Source: a virus. Taken from it: a DNA stretch of 37,895 nucleotides. Made by a program: the position numbers and the translations under genes. Below are positions 28,130-37,895 of the stretch, piece by piece; position 1 is the first letter of the stretch; each line of letters opens with the position of its first letter. The stretch is taken from positions 1 through 37,895 of IMG/VR virus record IMGVR_UViG_3300046520_000152. One strand, written 5' to 3'. Under the pieces are notes generated by a model. It saw only the letters and a list, made by a program, of their open reading frames with translations. It was not told the origin of the DNA and did no database searches.

Positions 28130-28349
28130 ACTGACCCGGGTACAGGCCGAAACCCTGACCTTCATCGCGGAGTACCGCAAGAAGAACGGTTATTCGCCGA
28201 CAGTTGCCGAGATGGCGAAAGCCGCCAATGTGAACGGCAATGCGATCTCAGACCGCATCACCGCGATGATCAAGAAAGGCGCGATCACCAAAACGCCTGG
28301 CATCGCGCGCAGTATACGGCCGACATCTGCAAGCCGCGATCAGGGTTAG
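28113..28349 (+). CDS. LexA-type DNA-binding domain protein
   Basis: A 78-residue protein matching the LexA winged helix: LTRVQAETLTFIAEYRKKNG, then YSPTVAEMAKAANVNGNAIS and a wing (AITKTPGIARSIRP). It lacks the protease domain. It might compete with host LexA at SOS boxes or control phage genes. The start at 28113 follows GGAGGA and overlaps the previous gene by 17 nt. Confidence 0.8.
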   Translation: MQTKNELTRVQAETLTFIAEYRKKNGYSPTVAEMAKAANVNGNAISDRITAMIKKGAITKTPGIARSIRPTSASRDQG

Positions 28350-28561
28350 ATGGTATCGACTCCTATTGATCCACCATCCTCGAAGCGTGCTTTGAAATTC
28401 TCTTTGTTGCACGGAGTCATTTTCCCGCATTTTGGGCATTGCTGTTGATTGCCGAACAAATGACTACCTTCAAAGCCAGCACGGTCGCCGATCCAAATCG
28501 CGGACTTGAACCAGGTTTTGCAGTACAGGCAACGCACCTGTATGTCTGTCGTCTTTGACAT
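28346..28561 (-). CDS. Zinc-ribbon protein on the opposite strand
   Basis: A 71-residue protein with VRCLYCKTWF and QCPKCGKMTPC, two CxxC knuckles 37 residues apart, expected to bind zinc. The ATG at 28561 has AAGGAG 6 nt upstream. It overlaps the LexA-like gene's end by 4 nt on the other strand. An accessory (moron-like) gene of unknown role. Confidence 0.7.
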   Translation of the reverse strand: MSKTTDIQVRCLYCKTWFKSAIWIGDRAGFEGSHLFGNQQQCPKCGKMTPCNKENFKARFEDGGSIGVDTI

Positions 28562-28660
28562 CTTCGCTCCTTCACCCGGCCCCATGCCGGTCACCACGTA
28601 TAGCCCACCACCAACCTATTCGCCACCGAACTTTCGGAGGCTTTCGCATGGAGCATTGCC

Positions 28661-29188
28661 ATGAGTGAATTTCAAATCAGCGAGGCCCAACTCGGCCTGC
28701 TGTGGCACACGCTGGGTATCCGGCCGGAGAGTCGGTATCACCGGGAAGTGTCTCGCAATTACTTCCTGACAAGCCCCGGCTATGACGATGCGAACAACCT
28801 GGACGTGCTGGTTGCGCAAGACCTGATGAAATGCGGAAAGCCACCGGGGTTCTGTGATCAGTCCGAAGTGGTTTACCGGGCGACTGACGCTGGCGAGATC
28901 TTCGCGCTGCGAAAGATGCCACCACTCCCCAAGCTTACGAAGTATCAGCAGTACCTGGACGAGGATATCGACTGCTCTTTTGCGGTGTGGCTGGGGATAG
29001 AAAAGCCAAAGCTGGAGCATCGAGGAACAAGCTGGTGGAGCAAGGATCGCCAGTTCAGGTTCAAGACCAGCCGGGCGACGGGCGATTGGTGCGCGACGCA
29101 AAAGGATGCGAAGGCCAGCTATAAAGCGGCGCTGAAGACCTCGCCCAAGCCTGGGCGGAGCGGGCAAGCCTGTTACAGCGAATTCTGA
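28661..29188 (+). CDS. Hypothetical phage protein
   Basis: A 175-residue protein. The N-terminal half (FQISEAQLGLLWHTLGIRPE, then YRATDAGEIFALRKM) recalls small phage proteins with a winged-helix-like start. The end is basic. GGAG stands 7 nt before the ATG. A six-codon frame with a stronger GGAGG starts at 28648 and overlaps this start. No function assigned. Confidence 0.75.
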   Translation: MSEFQISEAQLGLLWHTLGIRPESRYHREVSRNYFLTSPGYDDANNLDVLVAQDLMKCGKPPGFCDQSEVVYRATDAGEIFALRKMPPLPKLTKYQQYLDEDIDCSFAVWLGIEKPKLEHRGTSWWSKDRQFRFKTSRATGDWCATQKDAKASYKAALKTSPKPGRSGQACYSEF

Positions 29189-29215: not shown

Positions 29216-29494
29216 TCATCCTTCGCTCTCTCGGTGCTTGGAAATATTACGATACCCTCCCTGCACCATGCGGCTTAGCTGGTATTCCTCCCGGATCTGC
29301 GCAATGAGGTCGGAAATAAACCTGATAGACGTCAGGTCGGACACCGGGATACCTGGCACCGTCATGCCAATCTCATGGGTATCGGGATCGATCAATTGAA
29401 TTGTCATGACTCTCGTCGGGGAAATGCTGCAAATGCATTTCACTGGCAAAAAGCCTGACTCGACGATGTGTCGCAGCTCCAAATCGGAAATCAT
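29216..29494 (-). CDS. DUF1652 protein
   Basis: A 92-residue protein with the Pseudomonas DUF1652 pattern: MISDLELRHIVESGFLPVKC, then SISPTRVMTIQLIDPDTHEI, MTVPGIPVSDLTSIRFISDL. Function unknown. These genes are numerous in Pseudomonas chromosomes, so this one may be host-derived cargo. ATG 29494 is preferred to the longer frame from the match. Confidence 0.85.
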   Translation of the reverse strand: MISDLELRHIVESGFLPVKCICSISPTRVMTIQLIDPDTHEIGMTVPGIPVSDLTSIRFISDLIAQIREEYQLSRMVQGGYRNISKHRESEG

Positions 29495-29619
29495 CTCTGT
29501 GCCCTTAATGCGTGGGTGTATAGAGACGACAAAACCCGCCACTTGGCATTCGCCCTAATGGACGAGTGGTCAGAAATTACCAGACGACCCAACCATGCCG
29601 GCCTAATCACACCAGCGCA

Positions 29620-29835
29620 TCAGCCGCCTGCAGAATCACCGAAATCAAGCGCATCAGCCGCAACCTCGATCTCTCGGATAGCGGCAACAACAGATGGCGA
29701 TACGTTCTTAGGCAGAAGTGTCAGCGACCCAATTGCCTGCTCGCAAAGCTCATCGACATCAACGTGAAGCTCGCGAGCTGCGTTCAGTACAGCTTCAAGC
29801 GCGATAGATAGCGCCAATTCCCGGTTCTCGCTCAT
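29620..29835 (-). CDS. Hypothetical small helical protein
   Basis: A 71-residue acidic protein (LALSIALEAVLNAARELHVD, then VDELCEQAIGSLTLLP). ATG 29835 has GGGAGAAGG upstream. Its 5' end faces the methyltransferase gene, so a divergent promoter lies in 29,836-29,897. Function unknown. Confidence 0.6.
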   Translation of the reverse strand: MSENRELALSIALEAVLNAARELHVDVDELCEQAIGSLTLLPKNVSPSVVAAIREIEVAADALDFGDSAGG

Positions 29836-29897
29836 GACCTTCTCCCTTCCTGTGGAGAGGTAAGCGTAGGCCATTCCCAACCGCATGGAATCGAACC

Positions 29898-31028
29898 ATG
29901 AGCCAGCAGCACCAGATTCTGGTTGGCGACTGCATCGAGATGATGCGGACGCTGCCGGAGAAGTCAGTTCACACCTGCGTTACAAGCCCACCCTACTTCG
30001 GTCTGCGCGACTACGGGGTCGACGGGCAGATCGGTCTGGAGGAAACGCCTGCCGAATTTCTCGCCCGCCTCGTCGCCGTGTTTCGCGAAGTGCGTCGAGT
30101 ACTCCGCGACGACGGCACCATCTGGGTGAACATGGGCGACAGCTATGCCGGAAGCTGGGGCGCGCAAGGCAGGCCTCAAGGCGACGGCCAGATGTCAGGG
30201 CGCAGCGTCACATCGGCCCGCCAGATCAACGAACACCCACGATTCAAATCCGGTACCGGAGTGCGTGGCCGCGAGATGGGCATGAAGTCCAAGGACCTGA
30301 TGGGCATGCCTTGGCGCCTTGCCTTCGCGCTACAGGACGATGGCTGGTATTTACGGCAGGACATCATCTGGAACAAGCCGAACCCGATGCCGGAAAGCGT
30401 GCGCGACCGCTGCACCAAGTCGCACGAATACATCTTCCTGCTGAGCAAATCGAAGAAGTACTACTTCGACCAGGCGGCGATTCTCGAACCCTGCTCACCC
30501 AACACTCACGCCCGACTGTCTCAGGATGTTCAGGCGTTGATCGGCAGCGAGCGGGCCAACGGTGGCGCCAAGAGCAACGGGAACATGAAAGCGACGGCCC
30601 GGAAGTCGAACGGCGTTGGCTGGGGCCATGGCACTGACGCCGATGAGCGCCAGCGCGGCAGGATTAAGGACAACGAGTCGATGAACTCAGCGCTCGCGAT
30701 CATGCCCACCGAACGAAACAAGCGCAGCGTTTGGACTGTGGCCACACACAGTTTCAAGGGCGCCCACTTCGCCACCTTCCCGCCTGACCTGATCAGGCCC
30801 TGCATTCTGGCTGGCGCGCCGCGCGGCGGTTTGGTGCTTGACCCGTTTGGCGGCGCCGGAACCACGTCGCTGGTTTCGATGCAGGAAGGCCGGCGGTCGA
30901 TCCTGTGTGAGCTGAACCCAGAATATGCCGCTATGGCCAGAGCGCGAATCGACGCGGCCTGGCTGGACGGCGCGGCGCAGATGGACGTTTTTTACGATTC
31001 GATACCGCTAAAGTGTAACGAAGGTTAG
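29898..31028 (+). CDS. DNA methyltransferase, SPPY type (N4-cytosine or N6-adenine)
   Basis: A 376-residue methyltransferase of circularly permuted beta-type order. The catalytic motif TSPPYFGLRDYG (SPPY at 30-33) comes first, a target-recognition region lies between (~90-290), and the AdoMet site DPFGGAGTT (315-323) follows. SPPY most often marks N4-cytosine enzymes. No restriction enzyme gene is adjacent, so it is a solitary phage enzyme likely to protect phage DNA or alter host methylation. Confidence 0.93.
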   Translation: MSQQHQILVGDCIEMMRTLPEKSVHTCVTSPPYFGLRDYGVDGQIGLEETPAEFLARLVAVFREVRRVLRDDGTIWVNMGDSYAGSWGAQGRPQGDGQMSGRSVTSARQINEHPRFKSGTGVRGREMGMKSKDLMGMPWRLAFALQDDGWYLRQDIIWNKPNPMPESVRDRCTKSHEYIFLLSKSKKYYFDQAAILEPCSPNTHARLSQDVQALIGSERANGGAKSNGNMKATARKSNGVGWGHGTDADERQRGRIKDNESMNSALAIMPTERNKRSVWTVATHSFKGAHFATFPPDLIRPCILAGAPRGGLVLDPFGGAGTTSLVSMQEGRRSILCELNPEYAAMARARIDAAWLDGAAQMDVFYDSIPLKCNEG

Positions 31029-31030
31029 TG

Positions 31031-31657
31031 TCAAAGAGCATCCATGCCCTTCACCTTGACCCACTCGTCATAAAGTATCTTTTGCGTGATTTCGACTACT
31101 CGCTGGCCCTTGTCAACGATTGGTTTATACGCGGATGCAGCAGTAATATATTTACTCATCGCATCAATCAGATCTGAAGAATCATCTCTGCTTCGGCTCA
31201 CTAAAAGTTCTAACTGTGCAAAGTGCAGTCGAGCTTGCGCCATCTTGTCAGCGAATTCTGTGTACCTAATGTCGTAAAGCTCCTTCGACTTATTGAAATC
31301 CTGCGGAGTGTCACCTCTTACCCAAGATACATCGACAATATACTGCGAAACGCTGTGGACACTAGTCCCCATGGCTAGAAATGCCGCGACGTGCTCCCTG
31401 AAGATCGCAATCCACTCCAACCGACTCTTCGCTAGAAACTCGCCTTTGCTCTGATTCCTTAAGAAGTCGAAGTTGCTATTAGCAATTCTTTCTTGGCTGC
31501 TTATGGTTTTCTTGAAGGCGTAGGCGTTATAGATGGAACCAGCAACCACCGCCACGATAGCGGCCAGCGAACTTAAGATAGCAACCCAGTCCGTACCGGT
31601 ATCAACCACCAACTCAGGGAGACGGCTAACTGCGACCATCAAGTTTTCAATTCCCAC
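31031..31657 (-). CDS. Membrane protein with large helical domain, candidate exclusion/defence gene
   Basis: A 208-residue protein. One hydrophobic segment (WVAILSSLAAIVAVVAGSIY, ~25-44) is followed by a long cytoplasmic helical part beginning KSRLEWIAIFREHVAAFLAM. That motif recalls membrane proteins found in defence and abortive-infection loci. GTG 31657 has GGAGAG upstream; the frame is open 16 codons further. It is on the opposite strand between two methyltransferase genes and is AT-richer than they are. Function inferred weakly. Confidence 0.65.
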   Translation of the reverse strand: MGIENLMVAVSRLPELVVDTGTDWVAILSSLAAIVAVVAGSIYNAYAFKKTISSQERIANSNFDFLRNQSKGEFLAKSRLEWIAIFREHVAAFLAMGTSVHSVSQYIVDVSWVRGDTPQDFNKSKELYDIRYTEFADKMAQARLHFAQLELLVSRSRDDSSDLIDAMSKYITAASAYKPIVDKGQRVVEITQKILYDEWVKVKGMDAL

Positions 31658-31731
31658 CTGCCACTCTCCATAAAAGATTTGATCCCCTACATACCCCACT
31701 TTCACGAATCACGCCACTGGCGAGGATCAGC

Positions 31732-32655
31732 ATGACTACTGCAATCGATTTGTTCGCCGGGCTCGGCGGATGGTCTACCGGTGCCCGCGCGGCGGGTGTC
31801 GAAGTTCTCTGGGCTGCAAACCACTGGCCGGTCGCGGTCGAGTGGCACGCAGCCAACCACCCGGACACCCAGCACATCTGCCAAGACCTGCACCAGGCGC
31901 GCTGGGAGTTGGTGCCCGCTCACGACATGCTGCTGGCGTCGCCCTGCTGCCAAGGTCACTCGAAGGCCCGCGGCCAAGCGAACGGCAACCCACAACACGA
32001 CGCCTCACGCTCTACAGCCTGGGCTGTTGTGTCGGCCTTGGAGTTTCACCGGCCGGGTGTGGCATTGGTCGAGAACGTTCAGGAGTTCACCGACTGGGCG
32101 CTCTACCCTGCCTGGGTCTCCGCTGTTCAGGCGCTTGGATACCAGGTCGCGCCGCACGTCGTTGACTGTGCAGATCTGGGCGTTCCCCAGCACCGCGTCA
32201 GGTTGTTTCTGGTGCTGACCCTCAGCAAGGCGCCTTTGATGCTCGAACTGCACCGGCACCAGCACGTGCCCGCCGCCAGCTTCCTGGACTTTAACGCAGG
32301 GAAATGGTCACCGATCGACAAACCGGGCCGAGCACAGGCCACTCTCAATCGAGTCCGTAACGGCCGTGAGCGCTACGGCGATCAGTTCATCATGCCGTAC
32401 TACGGGAAAGGATCAGGTCTAACCGGGCGCGACATGAACAGGCCGATAGGCACCATCACTACGCTGGATCGCTGGGCCTTGGTGCGGGGCCAAGAGATGC
32501 GAATGCTCAGCGCCGACGAGGCCCTGGCCGCCATGTCTTTCCCCGCCGGCACGCTGCGCCCGAATAACCACCGCCAGACCATGCATATGGCCGGCAACGC
32601 TGTTCCCCCGCTCGCTGGACAGCGCGTGATCGAAGCGCTGATGGCAGCCATTTGA
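31732..32655 (+). CDS. C5-cytosine DNA methyltransferase
   Basis: A 307-residue Dcm-family enzyme. Motif I is DLFAGLGGWS. Motif IV is SPCCQGHS with catalytic C73, the residue before it being Cys instead of the usual Pro. Motif VI is ENV (114-116), motif VIII QHRVR (153-157), and the motif X region is GNAVPP. The target region is short. GAGGA precedes the ATG. No cognate nuclease is seen. It may guard phage DNA against host restriction. Confidence 0.95.
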   Translation: MTTAIDLFAGLGGWSTGARAAGVEVLWAANHWPVAVEWHAANHPDTQHICQDLHQARWELVPAHDMLLASPCCQGHSKARGQANGNPQHDASRSTAWAVVSALEFHRPGVALVENVQEFTDWALYPAWVSAVQALGYQVAPHVVDCADLGVPQHRVRLFLVLTLSKAPLMLELHRHQHVPAASFLDFNAGKWSPIDKPGRAQATLNRVRNGRERYGDQFIMPYYGKGSGLTGRDMNRPIGTITTLDRWALVRGQEMRMLSADEALAAMSFPAGTLRPNNHRQTMHMAGNAVPPLAGQRVIEALMAAI

Positions 32656-32685
32656 GTAACCACGATTTGTGGTGCTTCAAAGTGC

Positions 32686-33330
32686 CTAATTTACTACCTC
32701 CGCTTCAAGCCCTTCTAACTCTTTCATCCAACGAATTAAAAGCTCGTGATTAGCGACGACCTTGCTGCGATAGCTTAATGCATCAGTTTGGTTAACCATT
32801 CCAGCCTCAATAGCATTAGCTACAAATTCACCATAATTTGCAACTTCCCTTAAACCTATAACAAAGAAAACCATCTCATTTGAAATGGCGGTTACTGGAA
32901 TTTCTCTAAGCATCGAGGCGGCCTGCTTTAACTCGTGTAGCAAGGAATCTACACGCAGACCTCGTATAGGCCCGCCGAATAAAGAATGTGATGGATAAAC
33001 ATACACTTTTAGCCTTTTATATAAAGTTTCCATATGTTGCATCAACGCGTAGGTCGCATTGATACCATCGAGACGCTCTCGCAAAGCGGCAGCTCTAAGA
33101 TCAGCCTGTTGCTGGCGGCTTTGAAAGTAAGGGAGCGCTATTGCAACGACGATGGCGACGAACGCACCTATTGCTTGGGCCCATCCAGCCGAATCTGCCG
33201 GCAGCCATCCGTCACGAACCCAATATGCGACTGATCCGACAAGGAGCCAAAGCACGGCGCCCATGACCAGAACAGCCCACAGCACCCAAATTGAGTAGAG
33301 AGCCAGCGGTTCTGACAACGTCCTTTTCAC
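32686..33330 (-). CDS. Two-helix membrane protein with helical domain, candidate exclusion gene
   Basis: A 214-residue protein. Two N-terminal membrane helices (~10-36 and ~47-67) are followed by helical sequence (RLDGINATYALMQHMETLYK, then LRVDSLLHELKQAASMLREI). The layout, N-terminal helices plus a soluble helical part, resembles the other reverse-strand membrane gene 1 kb away. The GTG has AGGGA 6 nt upstream. It is AT-rich compared with neighbours, suggesting separate acquisition. No family recognised. Confidence 0.65.
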   Translation of the reverse strand: MKRTLSEPLALYSIWVLWAVLVMGAVLWLLVGSVAYWVRDGWLPADSAGWAQAIGAFVAIVVAIALPYFQSRQQQADLRAAALRERLDGINATYALMQHMETLYKRLKVYVYPSHSLFGGPIRGLRVDSLLHELKQAASMLREIPVTAISNEMVFFVIGLREVANYGEFVANAIEAGMVNQTDALSYRSKVVANHELLIRWMKELEGLEAEVVN

Positions 33331-33382
33331 GATATGTCCCTACAAATTTGTCGTCTTTACACTACCACTGCCTAACCACAAA

Positions 33383-33428
33383 GTAACCTCTATCGGTTAC
33401 ATCTCGAAAAGTAACCTGCATGGGTTAC
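33383..33428. promoter_or_regulatory. Tandem 18-bp dyads GTAACC-N6-GGTTAC
   Basis: Two perfect inverted repeats, at 33383-33400 and 33411-33428, are centred 28 bp apart. They lie between the divergent genes at 33330 (minus) and 33441 (plus). They differ from the CI operators, so another regulator must read them. Confidence 0.7.
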
Positions 33429-33440
33429 AGGGATATCTCA

Positions 33441-34016
33441 ATGCTTGAACAAATGAAAAATTCCGCAGCGAGCGGAGAGTGGAAGCTTGTTCCCGTGACG
33501 CAGCTGAAGAAGTGGCATCGCGACCTGGATGCCTGCCAGAAAGTGATGTGGTTGCGCGGCGGATTTGATCCGGCGTACTGCTTGGATGCGCAGGACTGCC
33601 TGAAGGAAATGGAAGGTGTGCTGGCTACCGCTTTGCCGCCTTATGGTCCAGCGCCAAAGGTACATCGCTACAGCGTCGTGAAAATGCTGTCCGAGGACGG
33701 AAACAAGATCGATTACAAGCCGCACGGTCCATCGGTGGTGATGGCTGATGTGCATGATGCTCACGTCACCCGCCTGCAGGCCAAGAACGCCGCACTCCAG
33801 CAGCGCCTGACCATCGCCGATCAGCAGGTAGACGATCTGACCACGCTGGCGAAACAGGCCTATATGGAAGGCTGGGAACTAGGATGGGTCGAGCGTCACA
33901 CCGACGCCAACAATGACAAGCGGGTTTCGCCTTGGGCACCGCCGAGGAACGTCATGGAGAGGGAGTGGCTGACCTCAGAAGCCTACACGGGGCTCAAAGG
34001 GATTTCTAAGAAGTAA
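33441..34016 (+). CDS. Hypothetical early phage protein
   Basis: A 191-residue protein. The N-terminal part contains SGEWKLVPVTQLKKWHRDLD, then a coiled coil (THVTRLQAKNAALQQRL-type, ~105-145) and a C-terminal YMEGWELGWVER. It resembles phage proteins with a W-x-L-VP start next to recombination genes. An ATG at 33420 lies inside the second dyad, so 33441 is preferred, with AGGGA upstream. Confidence 0.7.
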   Translation: MLEQMKNSAASGEWKLVPVTQLKKWHRDLDACQKVMWLRGGFDPAYCLDAQDCLKEMEGVLATALPPYGPAPKVHRYSVVKMLSEDGNKIDYKPHGPSVVMADVHDAHVTRLQAKNAALQQRLTIADQQVDDLTTLAKQAYMEGWELGWVERHTDANNDKRVSPWAPPRNVMEREWLTSEAYTGLKGISKK

Positions 34017-34245
34017 GCGGGTCATCAGGAGGTCGAGCGTCGAGCACTGGCATCGGATCGATGCGAATGCCCGCAACGGCAGTCATCCAGGCTTCATAGG
34101 CCGAGCTCTGGAGAGCGAGAGCTTCATCCCACCGGTTGCCTGAGAGCTCACCAGCCACGACTAACATCATCAATTTGGTTGTCGCAGCATCTAATTCCAC
34201 GAGAAGGAGGTGTGATTGAAAACGAAAATCCTCATTGGGATTCAT
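34006..34245 (-). CDS. Hypothetical small protein
   Basis: A 79-residue frame (FRFQSHLLLVELDAATTKLM, then RWDEALALQSSAYEAWMTAV) that is helical. The frame is open to 34338 with other ATGs, and none has a strong SD, so the start is uncertain. It overlaps the previous plus gene by 11 nt at its end. Upstream, CTATAC (34325-34330) and GTATAG (34345-34350) form a dyad that may control it. Confidence 0.5.
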   Translation of the reverse strand: MNPNEDFRFQSHLLLVELDAATTKLMMLVVAGELSGNRWDEALALQSSAYEAWMTAVAGIRIDPMPVLDARPPDDPLTS

Positions 34246-34464
34246 GATAATTCTCGGTTTTTCGCATAGCTGATAAGCGTGCAGTCTCACGCCGGTTTCA
34301 CCCTTCATCAGTATGGCGCAAAACCTATACATAGACATTTTTTTGTATAGAAATTTTGGGCAGATGGCGCCACAAAGCGCGCCTTAAACTCTCACTTCTT
34401 TTCACATTCATGCCGGTACCCCCTATCCCAATTGCCTGCTGCGTATGCGGCGAGGAGCTTTGCT

Positions 34465-34821
34465 GTGTCCGATTTCATAACAGATAGCACGCCAAGGGCA
34501 AAGCGGCCCCATACGTGCTGCGAATGCCAAGGGCTTATCCGCCCAGGCGAGAAATACCAGCGTACGGCCGGGCGCTGGGATGGCCGAATGGACGTGTTCA
34601 AGACCTGCACTCCGTGCCTCGAGACGCGTGACTGGGCCACCAGTCAGATGGAGTGGGGAGGCGGTGACGACCATCTCTTCTACTTCGAGATGTTGGAAGA
34701 TGACCTCCACAATATGGCGATGGAGATTCATCTCGGATCTGGCCGTCGATTCAAGGCCTATCGACTGCAGATCCTCATGGCTCGCCGACGTGAAGCAGCG
34801 CGCCTGGAGCAAGCAGCATGA
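34465..34821 (+). CDS. Zinc-binding phage protein
   Basis: A 118-residue protein. HTCCECQGLIRPGEKYQR followed by FKTCTPCLETRDW gives two Cys pairs of zinc-ribbon type. The C-terminal half is helical. GTG 34465 has GAGGAG 7 nt upstream; the longer frame from 34432 lacks an SD. It is coupled by ATGA to the next gene. Such proteins are common near int in Pseudomonas phages; role unknown. Confidence 0.75.
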   Translation: MSDFITDSTPRAKRPHTCCECQGLIRPGEKYQRTAGRWDGRMDVFKTCTPCLETRDWATSQMEWGGGDDHLFYFEMLEDDLHNMAMEIHLGSGRRFKAYRLQILMARRREAARLEQAA

Positions 34822-35036
34822 GCGGCCGTGACCAGTTTGAACATGCCTACGCCGAGGACAACAGCTGCACGCTGGACTGGTGCCAATCCCAGCGCCTGAG
34901 CAATGGCAGCTATCTGGATCGATACATGGCCCGCGCCTGGTTCTGGTGGCAGCGCGGCAAGGAGGCGGCACGATCCACCTCGTTTTCTTCCCGGCCCAGT
35001 ACGGTACCCCTGACCGCTGGATGCCCTGCACTGTAG
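34818..35036 (+). CDS. Small phage protein with probable lost stop codon
   Basis: A 72-codon frame. The first 51 residues look natural (EDNSCTLDWCQSQRLSNGSY, then ARAWFWWQRGKEAA). The last 21 are out of frame with the following gene and look random. A TGA at 34971-34973 would end it exactly at KEAA if one C were T. It starts by ATGA overlap with the zinc protein gene. Confidence 0.6.
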   Translation: MSGRDQFEHAYAEDNSCTLDWCQSQRLSNGSYLDRYMARAWFWWQRGKEAARSTSFSSRPSTVPLTAGCPAL

Positions 35037-35113
35037 ATGCCTTCGGCGTCTGGCGCTGCAATGGGATGTATATGCCGGCGCCAGTCGCGGACCGGATTAA
35101 GGGGGCCGCATGA
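34970..35113 (+). pseudogene. Small phage gene with ACG in place of its ATG
   Basis: The frame after ACG (34970) reads IHLVFFPAQYGTPDRWMPCT, then FGVWRCNGMYMPAPVADRI, clearly protein-like, and ends by ATGA overlap with the next gene. GGAGG stands at 34961-34965. A single T-to-C change would turn an ATGA overlap into ACGA, removing this start and the upstream stop together. Some initiation at ACG is possible. Confidence 0.55.
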
Positions 35114-35304
35114 GGCTGATCCCGCGCACCGGTTTCGTCCGGCGGCGACTCGAGGCTGCGCTGATCCTTCTGGCGGCATGGCTGTTGGCCGGACGCAACG
35201 TCCAGCGCTCCGGCGTCGTTTCCCGGCGCGATAACAACGACATTGGCTACATGGCCGAAAAGCTGGAAGGCATCGCCGACCGCATCAAGCGCAAGTACTC
35301 GTAA
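35110..35304 (+). CDS. Small membrane-associated phage protein
   Basis: A 64-residue protein. A basic N-terminus, one hydrophobic segment (LEAALILLAAWLLAG, ~14-28) and a charged C-terminal helix (YMAEKLEGIADRIKRKYS) suggest an N-in or peripheral membrane protein. It starts on the previous stop by ATGA. Function unknown. Confidence 0.65.
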   Translation: MRLIPRTGFVRRRLEAALILLAAWLLAGRNVQRSGVVSRRDNNDIGYMAEKLEGIADRIKRKYS

Positions 35305-35359
35305 CCCCTTCCCCATCTATCCACATGCCCGCCGGTGTACGGCGGGCGAGGAATTCTGC

Positions 35360-35740
35360 ATGCCTGAAATTAAACACACCCCCGGCCCGTGGCGAATCGT
35401 TAAAGGCTTCATGGGCGAAATCGAGATCGAGTCCGACAATGATCGAGACAATGCGGACGATAGTCAGGTGTACGTACTGGCCCGAGATATCGGCGGGAAA
35501 ATCCATGGTGAGACGTTCGACGACTACAGCGAGCAGGAGGCGAATGTAAGCCTGATTGCAGCAGCACCGGACATGCTTGCCGACCTTGTCGAGGCAGCCG
35601 CCACCCTGCGCCGGTACGAAACCCTGCACCGAGCCAAAGGCACAGACGAAAGCACCGCGAAGGCCGAGTTTAACGCGGCGCTCGCCACGCGCTTCGAGGC
35701 GACCATCGCTAAAGCCACGCAACCACTCAACCCCGCATAG
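35360..35740 (+). CDS. HTPGPW-type phage protein
   Basis: A 126-residue protein that starts EIKHTPGPWRIVKG and contains DIGGKIHGETFDDY, ANVSLIAAAPDMLADLVEAA and a helical end. The HTPGPW start with a later LIAAAPDML is a widespread phage and prophage signature of unknown function. ATG 35360 has GAGGA upstream. Confidence 0.85.
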   Translation: MPEIKHTPGPWRIVKGFMGEIEIESDNDRDNADDSQVYVLARDIGGKIHGETFDDYSEQEANVSLIAAAPDMLADLVEAAATLRRYETLHRAKGTDESTAKAEFNAALATRFEATIAKATQPLNPA

Positions 35741-35762
35741 AGCCCGGACGGAGGTAGCCAAC

Positions 35763-35975
35763 ATGAAGCGCGAACTGATCAAGATCAGCGAATTCCGCCG
35801 CCGGCGTTGGGGAGAGAACGGCACGCCGCCCTGCTCCCAAGCGATCCGCAATTACATCCGAGACGGTAAGCTTCCGGGCGAGCAGATCGGAAAACTCTGG
35901 TATATCGATTGGGCGGCTTTCAACAAATCCGCCGGCAACGAGCTCGTAGCGATGGTATTGAAAGGAGCTGCATGA
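35763..35975 (+). CDS. xis: Excisionase (MerR-like winged helix)
   Basis: A 70-residue DNA-binding protein (ISEFRRRRWGENGTPPCSQA, then IRNYIRDGKLPGEQIGKLWY) of the small excisionase and AlpA-like fold. It should bend DNA at the att site to drive excision. GGAGG is 8 nt before the ATG. Its stop overlaps the integrase start (ATGA), so both are made together from the early left transcript. Confidence 0.85.
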   Translation: MKRELIKISEFRRRRWGENGTPPCSQAIRNYIRDGKLPGEQIGKLWYIDWAAFNKSAGNELVAMVLKGAA

Positions 35976-37087
35976 TGGTCCCACGGCCGCGCAATAAGTC
36001 GAACAGAGGCTTGCCGCCGAATCTCTACCTGGATGATCGGCGCGGGACCTACCGGTACCGCAGGCCAACCGATGGCAAATGGTTTCCGTTCGGAGCCGAT
36101 CGGGTCAAGGCGGTAGACGCGGCCAAGCAATTGAACCTCGCGTTCATGCAGGGCGCCGACCTGGTTAGCGCAGTGATGGGCGAGTCTGCCGAGCTGTTCA
36201 CAGCATTCCTGACCCAGTATGAAGAGAAGGTGCTGCCTCCGCGCGAGCTCTCCGAAGGTACGCTGGGTCTGTACGCCGTCCACTTCCGGCGTTTCCGGAA
36301 GGCGTTCGAAGGAAAAGCGATCGACCAGATAACGATTCGCATGATCGCTGAACTGCTGGACTCTGTAACACCTCGCACTGCGAACCAGTGCCGGGCGCTG
36401 CTGATCGACATATTCAACCACGCTGCTGCGAAGGGGCTATGTCCCGACAACCCAGCGATGAGCACTATCAGCCGGATCGAAAAGAAAGCCCGCAAGCGCC
36501 ACACCGTCGAAGGCCTGAAAGCCATCCGGGAGAAATCGCCCGCTTGGCTGCAGAACGCAATTGATCTTGCGCTGATTACAGCGCAGCGGCGCACCGACAT
36601 TCTGTCCATGAAGTTCGAAGACGTGAAGGATGGATACCTCTACGTGGTCCAGCAGAAGACTGCCAAAGCGTCGGACATGGCATGGATCAGGTTTAGGGTT
36701 ACACCGGAGCTTCAGCGGGTCATCAGCCACTGCCGAGATAACATCGTCTCGCCATTTCTGATCCACCGACGGCCGGAACGAAAGAAACAGAAGCAGGCTG
36801 AAACGAAAGAGCATTGGACCAAGATTGAGGAACGGTATCTGACCAGGGCTTTCAAGGAAGCGCGGGAAGCGGCGGATTGTTACAAGGGATGGAAGGAAGA
36901 AGAGATGCCGGGCTTCCACGAAGTCAGAGCGCTGTCGCTGCATCTGTACAAGAAAGCCGGAAAGGATGGGCAGAAGATCGCCGGCCACGCCAGCGAGGAG
37001 ATGACCAAAAACTATCAGAAGGATCACGCAGAAGTGGTCTGGTCAGAGGCAGTACCCGACCTCGATATCAGCGAAATCGCCGGATAG
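35972..37087 (+). CDS. int: Integrase, lambda-Int type tyrosine recombinase
   Basis: A 371-residue protein. The N-terminal ~65 residues are a lambda-type arm-binding domain (PNLYLDDRRGTYRYRRPTDG). Residues ~70-175 are core-binding. The catalytic residues are R206 (TAQRRTDIL), K229, H316 and R319 (FHEVRALSLHLYKK), H339 (AGHAS) and Y348. ATG 35972 has GGAG 5 nt upstream. It ends 88 bp before the tRNA-Pro 3' end, its probable attB. Confidence 0.96.
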   Translation: MMVPRPRNKSNRGLPPNLYLDDRRGTYRYRRPTDGKWFPFGADRVKAVDAAKQLNLAFMQGADLVSAVMGESAELFTAFLTQYEEKVLPPRELSEGTLGLYAVHFRRFRKAFEGKAIDQITIRMIAELLDSVTPRTANQCRALLIDIFNHAAAKGLCPDNPAMSTISRIEKKARKRHTVEGLKAIREKSPAWLQNAIDLALITAQRRTDILSMKFEDVKDGYLYVVQQKTAKASDMAWIRFRVTPELQRVISHCRDNIVSPFLIHRRPERKKQKQAETKEHWTKIEERYLTRAFKEAREAADCYKGWKEEEMPGFHEVRALSLHLYKKAGKDGQKIAGHASEEMTKNYQKDHAEVVWSEAVPDLDISEIAG

Positions 37088-37117
37088 TTTTGCGCCAGTT
37101 TTGCGCGGGTTTTGCGC
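37087..37117 (+). repeat. Three tandem integrase arm-type sites
   Basis: GTTTTGCGC occurs at 37087-37095, 37098-37106 and 37109-37117, an exact 11-bp period. They begin on the last base of the int stop and lie between int and the tRNA. The period places them on one face of the helix, as expected for arm sites of a tyrosine integrase. Confidence 0.7.
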
Positions 37118-37131
37118 CGTCCAGAAATGAA

Positions 37132-37167
37132 AAAGGGAATCAAACCTGTAAGTGGCTGATTCCCTTT
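37132..37167 (-). terminator. Terminator downstream of tRNA-Pro, also follows int
   Basis: An 11-bp perfect stem, AAAGGGAATCA / TGATTCCCTTT, has a 14-nt loop. On the minus strand it runs on into TTTTT and lies just past the tRNA 3' end. In the plus direction the T tract is poor, so it mainly ends the tRNA transcript. Confidence 0.7.
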
Positions 37168-37175
37168 ACAAAATA

Positions 37176-37252
37176 TGGTCGGGACGGAGTGATTCGAACA
37201 CTCGACCCCTAGCACCCCATGCTAGTGCGCTACCGGACTGCGCTACGCCCCG
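37176..37252 (-). tRNA. tRNA-Pro (GGG), prophage attachment site
   Basis: A 77-nt cloverleaf. The acceptor CGGGGCG pairs with CGTCCCG (one G-T), a D-arm is present, the anticodon arm CTAGC-ATGGGGT-GCTAG gives anticodon GGG, the T-arm is GAGTG-TTCGAAT-CACTC, and CCA is encoded. Its 3' end faces the integrase gene, so the phage appears to have integrated there and restored the tRNA end. The att core is within its 3' half; the partner copy would be outside the window. Confidence 0.95.
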
Positions 37253-37295
37253 ACTAGGCGTGAAACTGTTTGCACTTCTTGCGAAGGCGTCGAGG

Positions 37296-37301
37296 AATAT
37301 A
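37296..37301 (-). promoter_or_regulatory. Possible -10 of a tRNA-Pro promoter
   Basis: TATATT on the minus strand lies 43 nt before the mature tRNA 5' end. A TTCCAT 17 bp upstream would be a weak -35. Transcription may also come through from the upstream gene. Confidence 0.35.
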
Positions 37302-37343
37302 CCCTAAGCGTTTGAATGATGGAAGTATTTTGATGTGACTGCG

Positions 37344-37700
37344 CTATTTGCGCAGCACGACCAGAACGTCTTCCAGCTCAGCAATCATCTGCTTGATCAA
37401 CTGCTTGTATTGCAGGGAATCGTCCTTGACCTCATCGCTAGACATGCGCAGGCGGGCGCCACCGATGGTGAAGCCCTGATCGTAAAGCAGCGCGCGGATC
37501 TGTCGGATCATCAGCACATCCTGTCGCTGATAATACCGACGATTCCCGCGGCGCTTGACCGGGTTGAGTTGAGGAAACTCCTGCTCCCAATAACGCAGAA
37601 CGTGCGGTTTTACCGCGCAGAGCTCGCTGACTTCACCAATGGTGAAATAGCGTTTGCCGGGAATGGGCGGTAGCTCGTCGTTATGACTTGGTTCCAGCAT
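37344..37700 (-). CDS. MerR-family regulator next to ihfA (host gene)
   Basis: A 118-residue protein. The winged helix reads [20 protein letters not shown], then [20 protein letters not shown]; a dimerisation helix follows ([19 protein letters not shown]). It is the conserved MerR-like gene that follows ihfA in Pseudomonas and related genera. Its ligand is unknown. ATG 37700 overlaps the end of ihfA by 20 nt. Confidence 0.93.
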
Positions 37701-37895
37701 AAGCCTCAACTCGGGCCTTCAATTTCTGCCCTGGGCGAAAGGTGACCACACGGCGAGCCGTAATCGGAATTTCTTCCCCTGTCTTGGGATTTCGACCCGG
37801 TCGCTGGCGTTTATCTCGCAGGTCAAAATTGCCGAATCCGGACAATTTGACCTGCTCGTTATCTTCCAGAGCGTGCCTGATTTCCTCAAAGAACA
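37681..37895 (-). CDS. ihfA: Integration host factor alpha subunit, 5' part outside window
   Basis: The C-terminal 71 residues are present: [40 protein letters not shown], then [20 protein letters not shown]. These include the DNA-intercalating arm with the RPGRNPKTG and Pro tip typical of IHF and HU. IHF bends DNA at phage att and cos sites, so it is a host factor this prophage is likely to use. Confidence 0.97.

What the first reader, a model, noticed from the sequence alone, without database searches (positions are those of the whole stretch)
29898..33330. Candidate defence or exclusion island: two solitary methyltransferases alternating with reverse-strand membrane proteins
Order is SPPY methyltransferase (+), membrane-helical protein (-), C5 methyltransferase (+), two-helix membrane protein (-). 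The membrane genes are AT-richer and run against the operon, so they probably have their own promoters and act in the lysogen. N-terminal helices plus a helical cytoplasmic part is common among abortive infection and exclusion proteins. Membrane effectors could sense invading DNA that lacks the phage's two methyl marks; this last step is speculation.
Basis: inference. Interest (0 to 1): 0.65.

Follow-up and report, generated by a model that had tools for sequence, protein, structure and literature searches.

The report
Swappable prophage membrane-gene slots around methyltransferases
Two unrelated membrane-protein genes that run backwards between two DNA-methylation genes of a Pseudomonas prophage are not one four-part system but independent, interchangeable add-on genes in a swapping hotspot, most likely a shelf of ever-changing proteins that protect the infected cell from other phages.

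Summary
In detail: N4/N6 methyltransferase (+, 29898-31028), membrane protein (-, 31031-31657, 208 aa by homology), C5 methyltransferase (+, 31732-32655), two-helix membrane protein (-, 32686-33330); the membrane genes are ~47% GC against 62-64%. The reading as one methylation-sensing unit is not supported. A sister prophage 99.97% identical from 31691 rightwards lacks the 208-aa gene. Only 5 of 113 C5-methyltransferase loci have a full-length N4 relative nearby. Another phage keeps the same order with an unrelated protein in the first slot. Both membrane families occur far from these methyltransferases. The flanks of the C5 gene are hypervariable slots: 156 reverse-strand genes in about 90 clusters, 58% of those >=120 aa with a membrane helix against 8% of forward genes. 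Some occupants match AbiC, AbiU2, PD-T7-4 or PDC-S31 defence families. In a subset, the reverse gene's sigma-70 promoter overlaps the C5 start codon. Short stop-to-start linkers, one with twin palindromes, recur next to unrelated genes and mark exchange points. Best reading: two independent lysogenic 'moron' cassettes, probably exclusion or abortive-infection proteins, beside orphan methyltransferases. The function is inferred; no experiment was possible.

The parts
29898..31028 (+). orphan N4-cytosine/N6-adenine DNA methyltransferase (TSPPY), 376 aa
   Evidence: PF01555 1.7e-49; motifs; 58-69% identical relatives in Pseudomonas phages without the rest of the set
31031..31657 (-). membrane-anchored helical protein 'TM208' (listed ORF 31031-31705, 224 aa; start by homology at 31657), slot A moron
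   Evidence: family in 18 of 399 Pseudomonas genomes; absent from the sister prophage
31732..32655 (+). orphan C5 DNA methyltransferase, 307 aa; anchor gene of the two slots
   Evidence: PF00145 4.3e-36; 115 loci fetched with flanks
32686..33330 (-). two-helix membrane protein 'TM214', slot B moron
   Evidence: superfamily in 64 of 399 Pseudomonas genomes, many weakly; empty site in L007, L042, L046
31691..31731 (.). 41-bp linker before C5; left edge of 99.97% identity with the sister prophage; also found at another place in L004, L028 and L046
   Evidence: conservation peak
33368..33444 (.). stop-to-start linker with twin palindromes GTAACC-N6-GGTTAC (33383-33400, 33411-33428) and Shine-Dalgarno AGGGAT before the ATG at 33441
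   Evidence: 58 viral contigs, many unrelated downstream genes
29828..29896 (.). linker before the N4/N6 methyltransferase; 100% identical in L007
28541..28660 (.). another conserved linker further left, between reverse ORF 28346-28561 and forward gene 28661-29188
   Evidence: up to 41 short matches among fetched loci
33441..34016 (+). forward gene of unknown function that follows the twin-palindrome linker (191 aa)
   Evidence: no family; same linker precedes other genes elsewhere

Best explanation
The four genes are independent modules in a recombination-prone early region of a Pseudomonas temperate phage. The two methyltransferases are forward-strand orphan enzymes, probably protecting phage DNA from host restriction (inferred). 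The two reverse-strand genes are separately acquired single-gene morons sitting in slots on either side of the C5 gene. Each encodes an inner-membrane anchor joined to a cytoplasmic helical domain. Shown: they are swapped or lost as units, and reverse-slot occupants as a class are rich in membrane proteins. In a subset of loci the reverse gene has its own sigma-70-like promoter overlapping the C5 start. Conserved linkers running from the stop codon of one gene to the start codon of the next recur next to unrelated genes and offer homology for exchange (exchange mechanism inferred). Inferred: they are expressed from the prophage and stop other phages at the membrane, by exclusion of DNA entry or by membrane-level abortive infection.
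For: Swap: window 31691-37895 is 99.97% identical to L041, with different genes left of the linker. Empty slot B in L007, L042, L046. Same order N4/TM/C5/TM in L004 with an unrelated slot A protein. Slot survey: 156 reverse genes, 90 clusters; membrane helix in 45/77 reverse slot proteins against 55/705 forward genes, p=6.6e-25, and 32/58 clusters against 31/298, p=3.6e-13. Promoter: median score 8.9 with a reverse gene against 5.0 without, p=1.8e-8; a -10 at the fixed place in 13/42 against 3/42, p=0.011. Defence families among occupants: putAbiC/AbiC, HEPN_AbiU2, PD-T7-4, PDC-S31. Charge pattern puts the helical part in the cytoplasm. Known parallel: the Tab defence moron of P. aeruginosa phage JBD26 is minus-strand with its own promoter (PMC10884400).
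Against: Neither protein is itself related to a known defence or exclusion protein by sequence or fold. Forward genes of the same loci also hit PADLOC, mostly generic methyltransferases, so raw PADLOC counts do not show enrichment. The window's own slot A lacks the canonical fixed-position promoter (best 8.5, not special against shuffles), and the consensus scan of the region found none on the minus strand. Gene calls in the survey are from my own script and some short ORFs may be spurious.
Confidence: 0.6

Rival explanations
1. One reading: the two methyltransferases and the two membrane proteins form one system in which membrane effectors attack DNA lacking the phage's two methyl marks.
For: The four genes are adjacent and some membrane relatives do lie beside a C5 or N4 gene (L181-L183, L185).
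Against: Full combination seen only in the window; L004/L003 keep the order with an unrelated slot A protein. N4 and C5 co-occur in 5 of 113 loci. Membrane families occur without these MTases. 28 of 113 C5 loci have no reverse gene in either slot. No recognisable nuclease or DNA-sensing domain.
Confidence: 0.04
2. The reverse-strand genes are lysogenic conversion genes with host-directed roles (stress, envelope or signalling changes) rather than phage defence.
For: Morons in general need not be defensive; the slot also holds a MltR-like protein, transposase pieces and many orphan families. Weak, non-significant fold resemblance of TM208 to chemoreceptor four-helix sensor domains.
Against: Several occupants belong to known or candidate defence families; the high turnover fits an arms race.
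Confidence: 0.25
3. The membrane proteins act in the lytic cycle or in establishing lysogeny (for example membrane signalling for lysis timing or injection), with opposite orientation only a by-product of insertion.
For: Both lie in the early region; their expression was not measured.
Against: Opposite strand to the operon; reverse promoters in related loci; absent from close relatives, so not essential.
Confidence: 0.07
4. Neutral or decaying hitchhikers maintained only by recombination at the linkers.
For: Some relatives are truncated or frameshifted (L014, L017), and the C5 gene itself is broken in L021/L105 and L029.
Against: Full-length ORFs conserved at 25-67% (TM208) and 27-81% (TM214) identity with invariant positions across 15 and 11 family members.
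Confidence: 0.04

Closest known systems
Phage morons with own promoter; e.g. Tab of P. aeruginosa phage JBD26 (PMC10884400) and accessory genes in 'regions of genomic plasticity' of Mu-like Pseudomonas phages (PMC4378225)
   Same: single gene inserted between core phage genes, deviating base composition, own promoter, opposite strand (Tab)
   Different: Tab is an 83-residue protein between terminase genes that blocks virion assembly; here membrane-anchored helical proteins in the early region, and different phages
Prophage defence hotspots of P2-like phages (PMC9519451)
   Same: fixed position flanked by conserved phage genes with dozens of unrelated single-gene cassettes, some known defence systems
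   Different: anchored on a C5 methyltransferase gene in Pseudomonas phages, strongly biased to membrane proteins; activity of occupants untested
Membrane exclusion proteins: RexB-like, CarolAnn gp43/Sbash gp31, Charlie single membrane protein (PMC6426606); HK97 gp15 (cited in PMC10884400)
   Same: small prophage membrane proteins acting in the lysogen
   Different: CarolAnn/Sbash are four-helix membrane proteins paired with a partner gene; no homology of TM208 or TM214 to a named exclusion family was seen in the family searches
Start-associated sequences (SAS/ESAS) of cluster K mycobacteriophages (PMC3203893)
   Same: conserved element with ribosome-binding site next to start codons of genes of different families, about half with inverted repeats
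   Different: here the twin-palindrome linker occurs once in the window and was compared across genomes; sequence unrelated (GTAACC-N6-GGTTAC twice)
AbiC / Pfam putAbiC
   Same: other occupants of the same slots match it, with two N-terminal helices and a long remainder
   Different: the two window proteins do not match it

Membership tests
Phage moron / lysogenic conversion cassette | present or absent between the same two genes in close relatives | tested here: met
   slot A swapped in L041, slot B empty in L007/L042/L046
Phage moron / lysogenic conversion cassette | base composition unlike neighbours | tested here: met
   47% against 62-64% GC
Phage moron / lysogenic conversion cassette | own promoter | tested here: inconclusive
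   met for the slot A class across loci; no convincing consensus promoter for the window's two genes
Phage moron / lysogenic conversion cassette | own terminator | tested here: inconclusive
   terminator-like sites no more than expected by chance
Phage moron / lysogenic conversion cassette | expression in the lysogen | not testable with these tools
   needs RNA-seq
Prophage superinfection exclusion / Abi protein | reduces infection by other phages | not testable with these tools
   needs plaque assays
Prophage superinfection exclusion / Abi protein | homology to a known family (AbiC, PADLOC models) | tested here: not met
   only weak hits, PADLOC E>=0.0038 and Pfam DUF4381 0.0029 below its cut-off; no significant fold match
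Restriction-modification or DISARM-like system | cognate nuclease/helicase gene next to the methyltransferases | tested here: not met
   neighbours scanned have no such domain; C5 scores DrmMII 9.1e-46 in PADLOC but no other DISARM gene is among the neighbours scanned
Phage defence hotspot | conserved flank with many unrelated occupants including known defence genes | tested here: met
   caution from control

The most novel reading that the evidence does not exclude
Pseudomonas temperate phages share a standardised cassette-exchange layout. Stop-to-start linkers (one with twin operator-like palindromes) let whole genes be traded by homologous recombination, and the C5 methyltransferase gene anchors two slots reserved for lysogen-expressed membrane exclusion proteins. 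In some of these the methyltransferase's own second codon supplies the -35 box of the opposite gene. The slots would then be a large, mostly undescribed reservoir of membrane-acting anti-phage proteins.
Probability: 0.3. Interest if true: 0.72.

Novelty: new member of a known kind. Interest (0 to 1): 0.5.

Why it matters
If true, the flanks of one easily found gene (the C5 methyltransferase of Pseudomonas temperate phages) point to dozens of unrelated, mostly unnamed small membrane proteins that are good candidates for prophage-encoded exclusion or abortive infection. It would also explain how such genes are traded between phages and kept switched on in the lysogen. It removes a tempting but unsupported idea, that membrane effectors read phage methylation.

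Tried and rejected
Looked for the 224-aa protein as a single query in phage records, viral contigs and genomes: no hit; relatives only appeared after the slot survey gave a family profile. Tested whether the two membrane families are one family: no, profile comparison 0.5% probability. Fold search of both models: nothing at E<=0.001; the chemoreceptor-like four-helix hits for TM208 are not significant. PADLOC enrichment of slot genes: not usable, because forward genes hit PADLOC too. Twin palindromes as a repeated operator inside the window: only the one pair at zero mismatches; looser matches equal chance. Consensus promoter/terminator scan of the window: at or below chance.

Full report
1. 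What is there. The window is a 37,895-bp IMG/VR virus record ending on the right with an integrase and a tRNA-Pro gene, so it is a Pseudomonas-type prophage. All four genes of the finding are present: an N4/N6 methyltransferase (29898-31028, +), a reverse-strand membrane protein, a C5 methyltransferase (31732-32655, +) and a second reverse-strand membrane protein (32686-33330, -). Both methyltransferases keep their catalytic motifs. The membrane genes are 47% GC against 62-64% for the methyltransferases. The first membrane ORF is 224 aa as listed, but relatives start at the codon at 31657, giving 208 aa; I call it TM208, the other TM214.

2. The four genes do not travel together. A sister prophage (L041) is 99.97% identical from 31691 to the right end, including the C5 gene and TM214, but carries different genes to the left of 31691; TM208 is gone. 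L007, L042 and L046 have the C5 stop codon followed directly by the next linker, an empty TM214 site. L004 has the same order N4 / membrane / C5 / membrane, but its first membrane protein is unrelated to TM208. Of 113 C5 loci, five have a full-length N4 relative within 4.5 kb, and 28 have no reverse gene of 80 aa or more on either side. TM208 relatives occur in 18 of 399 Pseudomonas genomes and the TM214 superfamily in 64 of 399, many weakly. Some lie beside a C5 or N4 gene (L181-L183, L185) and others have neither within about 8 kb (L177-L180); most TM208 relatives on viral contigs likewise have no N4 or C5 gene within 4 kb.

3. The flanks of the C5 gene are hypervariable slots. I called genes with a simple script around 113 C5 relatives. 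Between C5 and its nearest forward neighbours lie 156 reverse-strand ORFs of at least 80 aa in 90 clusters. Families recur in either slot (for example L061_A0 with L110_B0, L042_A0 with L100_B0). A membrane helix is predicted in 45 of 77 non-redundant slot proteins of 120 aa or more against 55 of 705 forward genes (p=6.6e-25); by cluster 32 of 58 against 31 of 298 (p=3.6e-13). Occupants include putAbiC/AbiC, HEPN_AbiU2, DUF4145/PD-T7-4, PDC-S31, DUF2971 and NarE-like proteins. A control set of 94 forward genes also hits PADLOC, chiefly generic methyltransferases, so these named hits are suggestive and not an enrichment test.

4. Promoters. Upstream of slot A reverse genes the best sigma-70 score is higher than in loci without one (median 8.9, n=46, against 5.0, n=50; p=1.8e-8). 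In a subset the -35 (TGGGCA or TGGTCA) lies on the C5 start codon, 17 bp from a -10 such as TATAGT or TATATT. At that fixed place a 4-of-6 -10 is found in 13 of 42 loci with a reverse gene and 3 of 42 without (p=0.011). Two of the three exceptions (L089, L118) do have a reverse ORF there that my cut-offs excluded. Where this promoter is present the second C5 codon is usually proline (CCC), which supplies TGGGCA (p=1.3e-4); shared ancestry may contribute. The window's own slot A uses a different leader and has no convincing promoter, and no consensus promoter was found on its minus strand.

5. Linkers. Comparison with other loci shows short conserved stretches at gene junctions with little-conserved sequence between them: 28541-28660, 29801-29896, 31691-31731, 33368-33444, 34421-34456, 35261-35380, 35681-35765 (the 33368 peak is inflated because loci were also fetched by that motif). 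The one after TM214 contains two GTAACC-N6-GGTTAC palindromes, 28 bp apart, and a Shine-Dalgarno site. In relatives it runs from the stop codon of one gene to the start codon of the next, and it precedes many unrelated genes in 58 viral contigs. Start-associated sequences of cluster K mycobacteriophages are the nearest parallel (PMC3203893). Exchange by homologous recombination at such linkers is my inference; the L041 breakpoint at 31691 fits it.

6. The proteins. AlphaFold gives TM208 a membrane helix continuing into a long helix and three more helices (pLDDT 80), and TM214 two N-terminal helices and a helical remainder (pLDDT 72). The two families are not detectably related, and neither model has a significant fold match. 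The charge pattern puts the C-terminal part in the cytoplasm.

7. Interpretation. Shown: independence of the modules, slot turnover, bias to membrane proteins, a reverse promoter class, shared linkers. Inferred: expression in the lysogen, and a role in excluding or aborting other phages. The Tab moron of phage JBD26, on the minus strand with its own promoter (PMC10884400), prophage hotspots of P2-like phages (PMC9519451) and membrane exclusion proteins such as CarolAnn gp43 (PMC6426606) make this the most likely function. The methyltransferases are best read as orphan, probably anti-restriction enzymes; the link between methyl marks and membrane proteins has no support. I did not find this C5-anchored slot described in the open-access library, but most subscription papers are not held there.

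Noticed in passing
window 33383-33428; L004, L007, L028, L041-L043, L046, L234-L291: Twin GTAACC-N6-GGTTAC palindromes 28 bp apart in a stop-to-start linker before many unrelated genes; could be operator, RNA hairpins or recombination site. Binding factor unknown.
   Followed up: partly
L012 5836-6993; similar-sized forward genes directly before C5 in L013, L019, L065: Forward reverse-transcriptase gene (PF00078 1.1e-16 in L012) directly before the C5 gene, preceded by ORFs of about 118 and 200 aa; looks like a diversity-generating retroelement or defence RT.
   Followed up: partly
L021/L105 and L029 (C5 gene, near 7001 or 4140): C5 gene carries in-frame stops or frameshift-like stretches in some prophages, so the enzyme is dispensable there.
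   Followed up: partly
L205, L210, L212, L198: Short C5 gene fragments (for example residues 281-303 at 91%) next to membrane-gene relatives: possible scars of gene replacement.
   Followed up: no
L014 7001-7918 and 10056-10979: Two C5 genes in one prophage, the second followed by a TM214 relative that is not one intact ORF in my calls.
   Followed up: no
window 34006-34338 (-), 29216-29542 (-), 29620-29886 (-), 28346-28561 (-): Further reverse-strand ORFs alternating with forward genes; 29216-29542 is DUF1652 (2.2e-18), 28346-28561 has paired cysteines like a zinc ribbon.
   Followed up: partly
L122 3578-4968 (phage Cruim01): Retron-type reverse transcriptase with annotated RT-15 RNA a little upstream of the N4/N6 methyltransferase relative.
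   Followed up: no
L187 498-2113: Closest TM208 relative (about 66%) followed by a second membrane protein resembling L006_A0: two morons in tandem.
   Followed up: no
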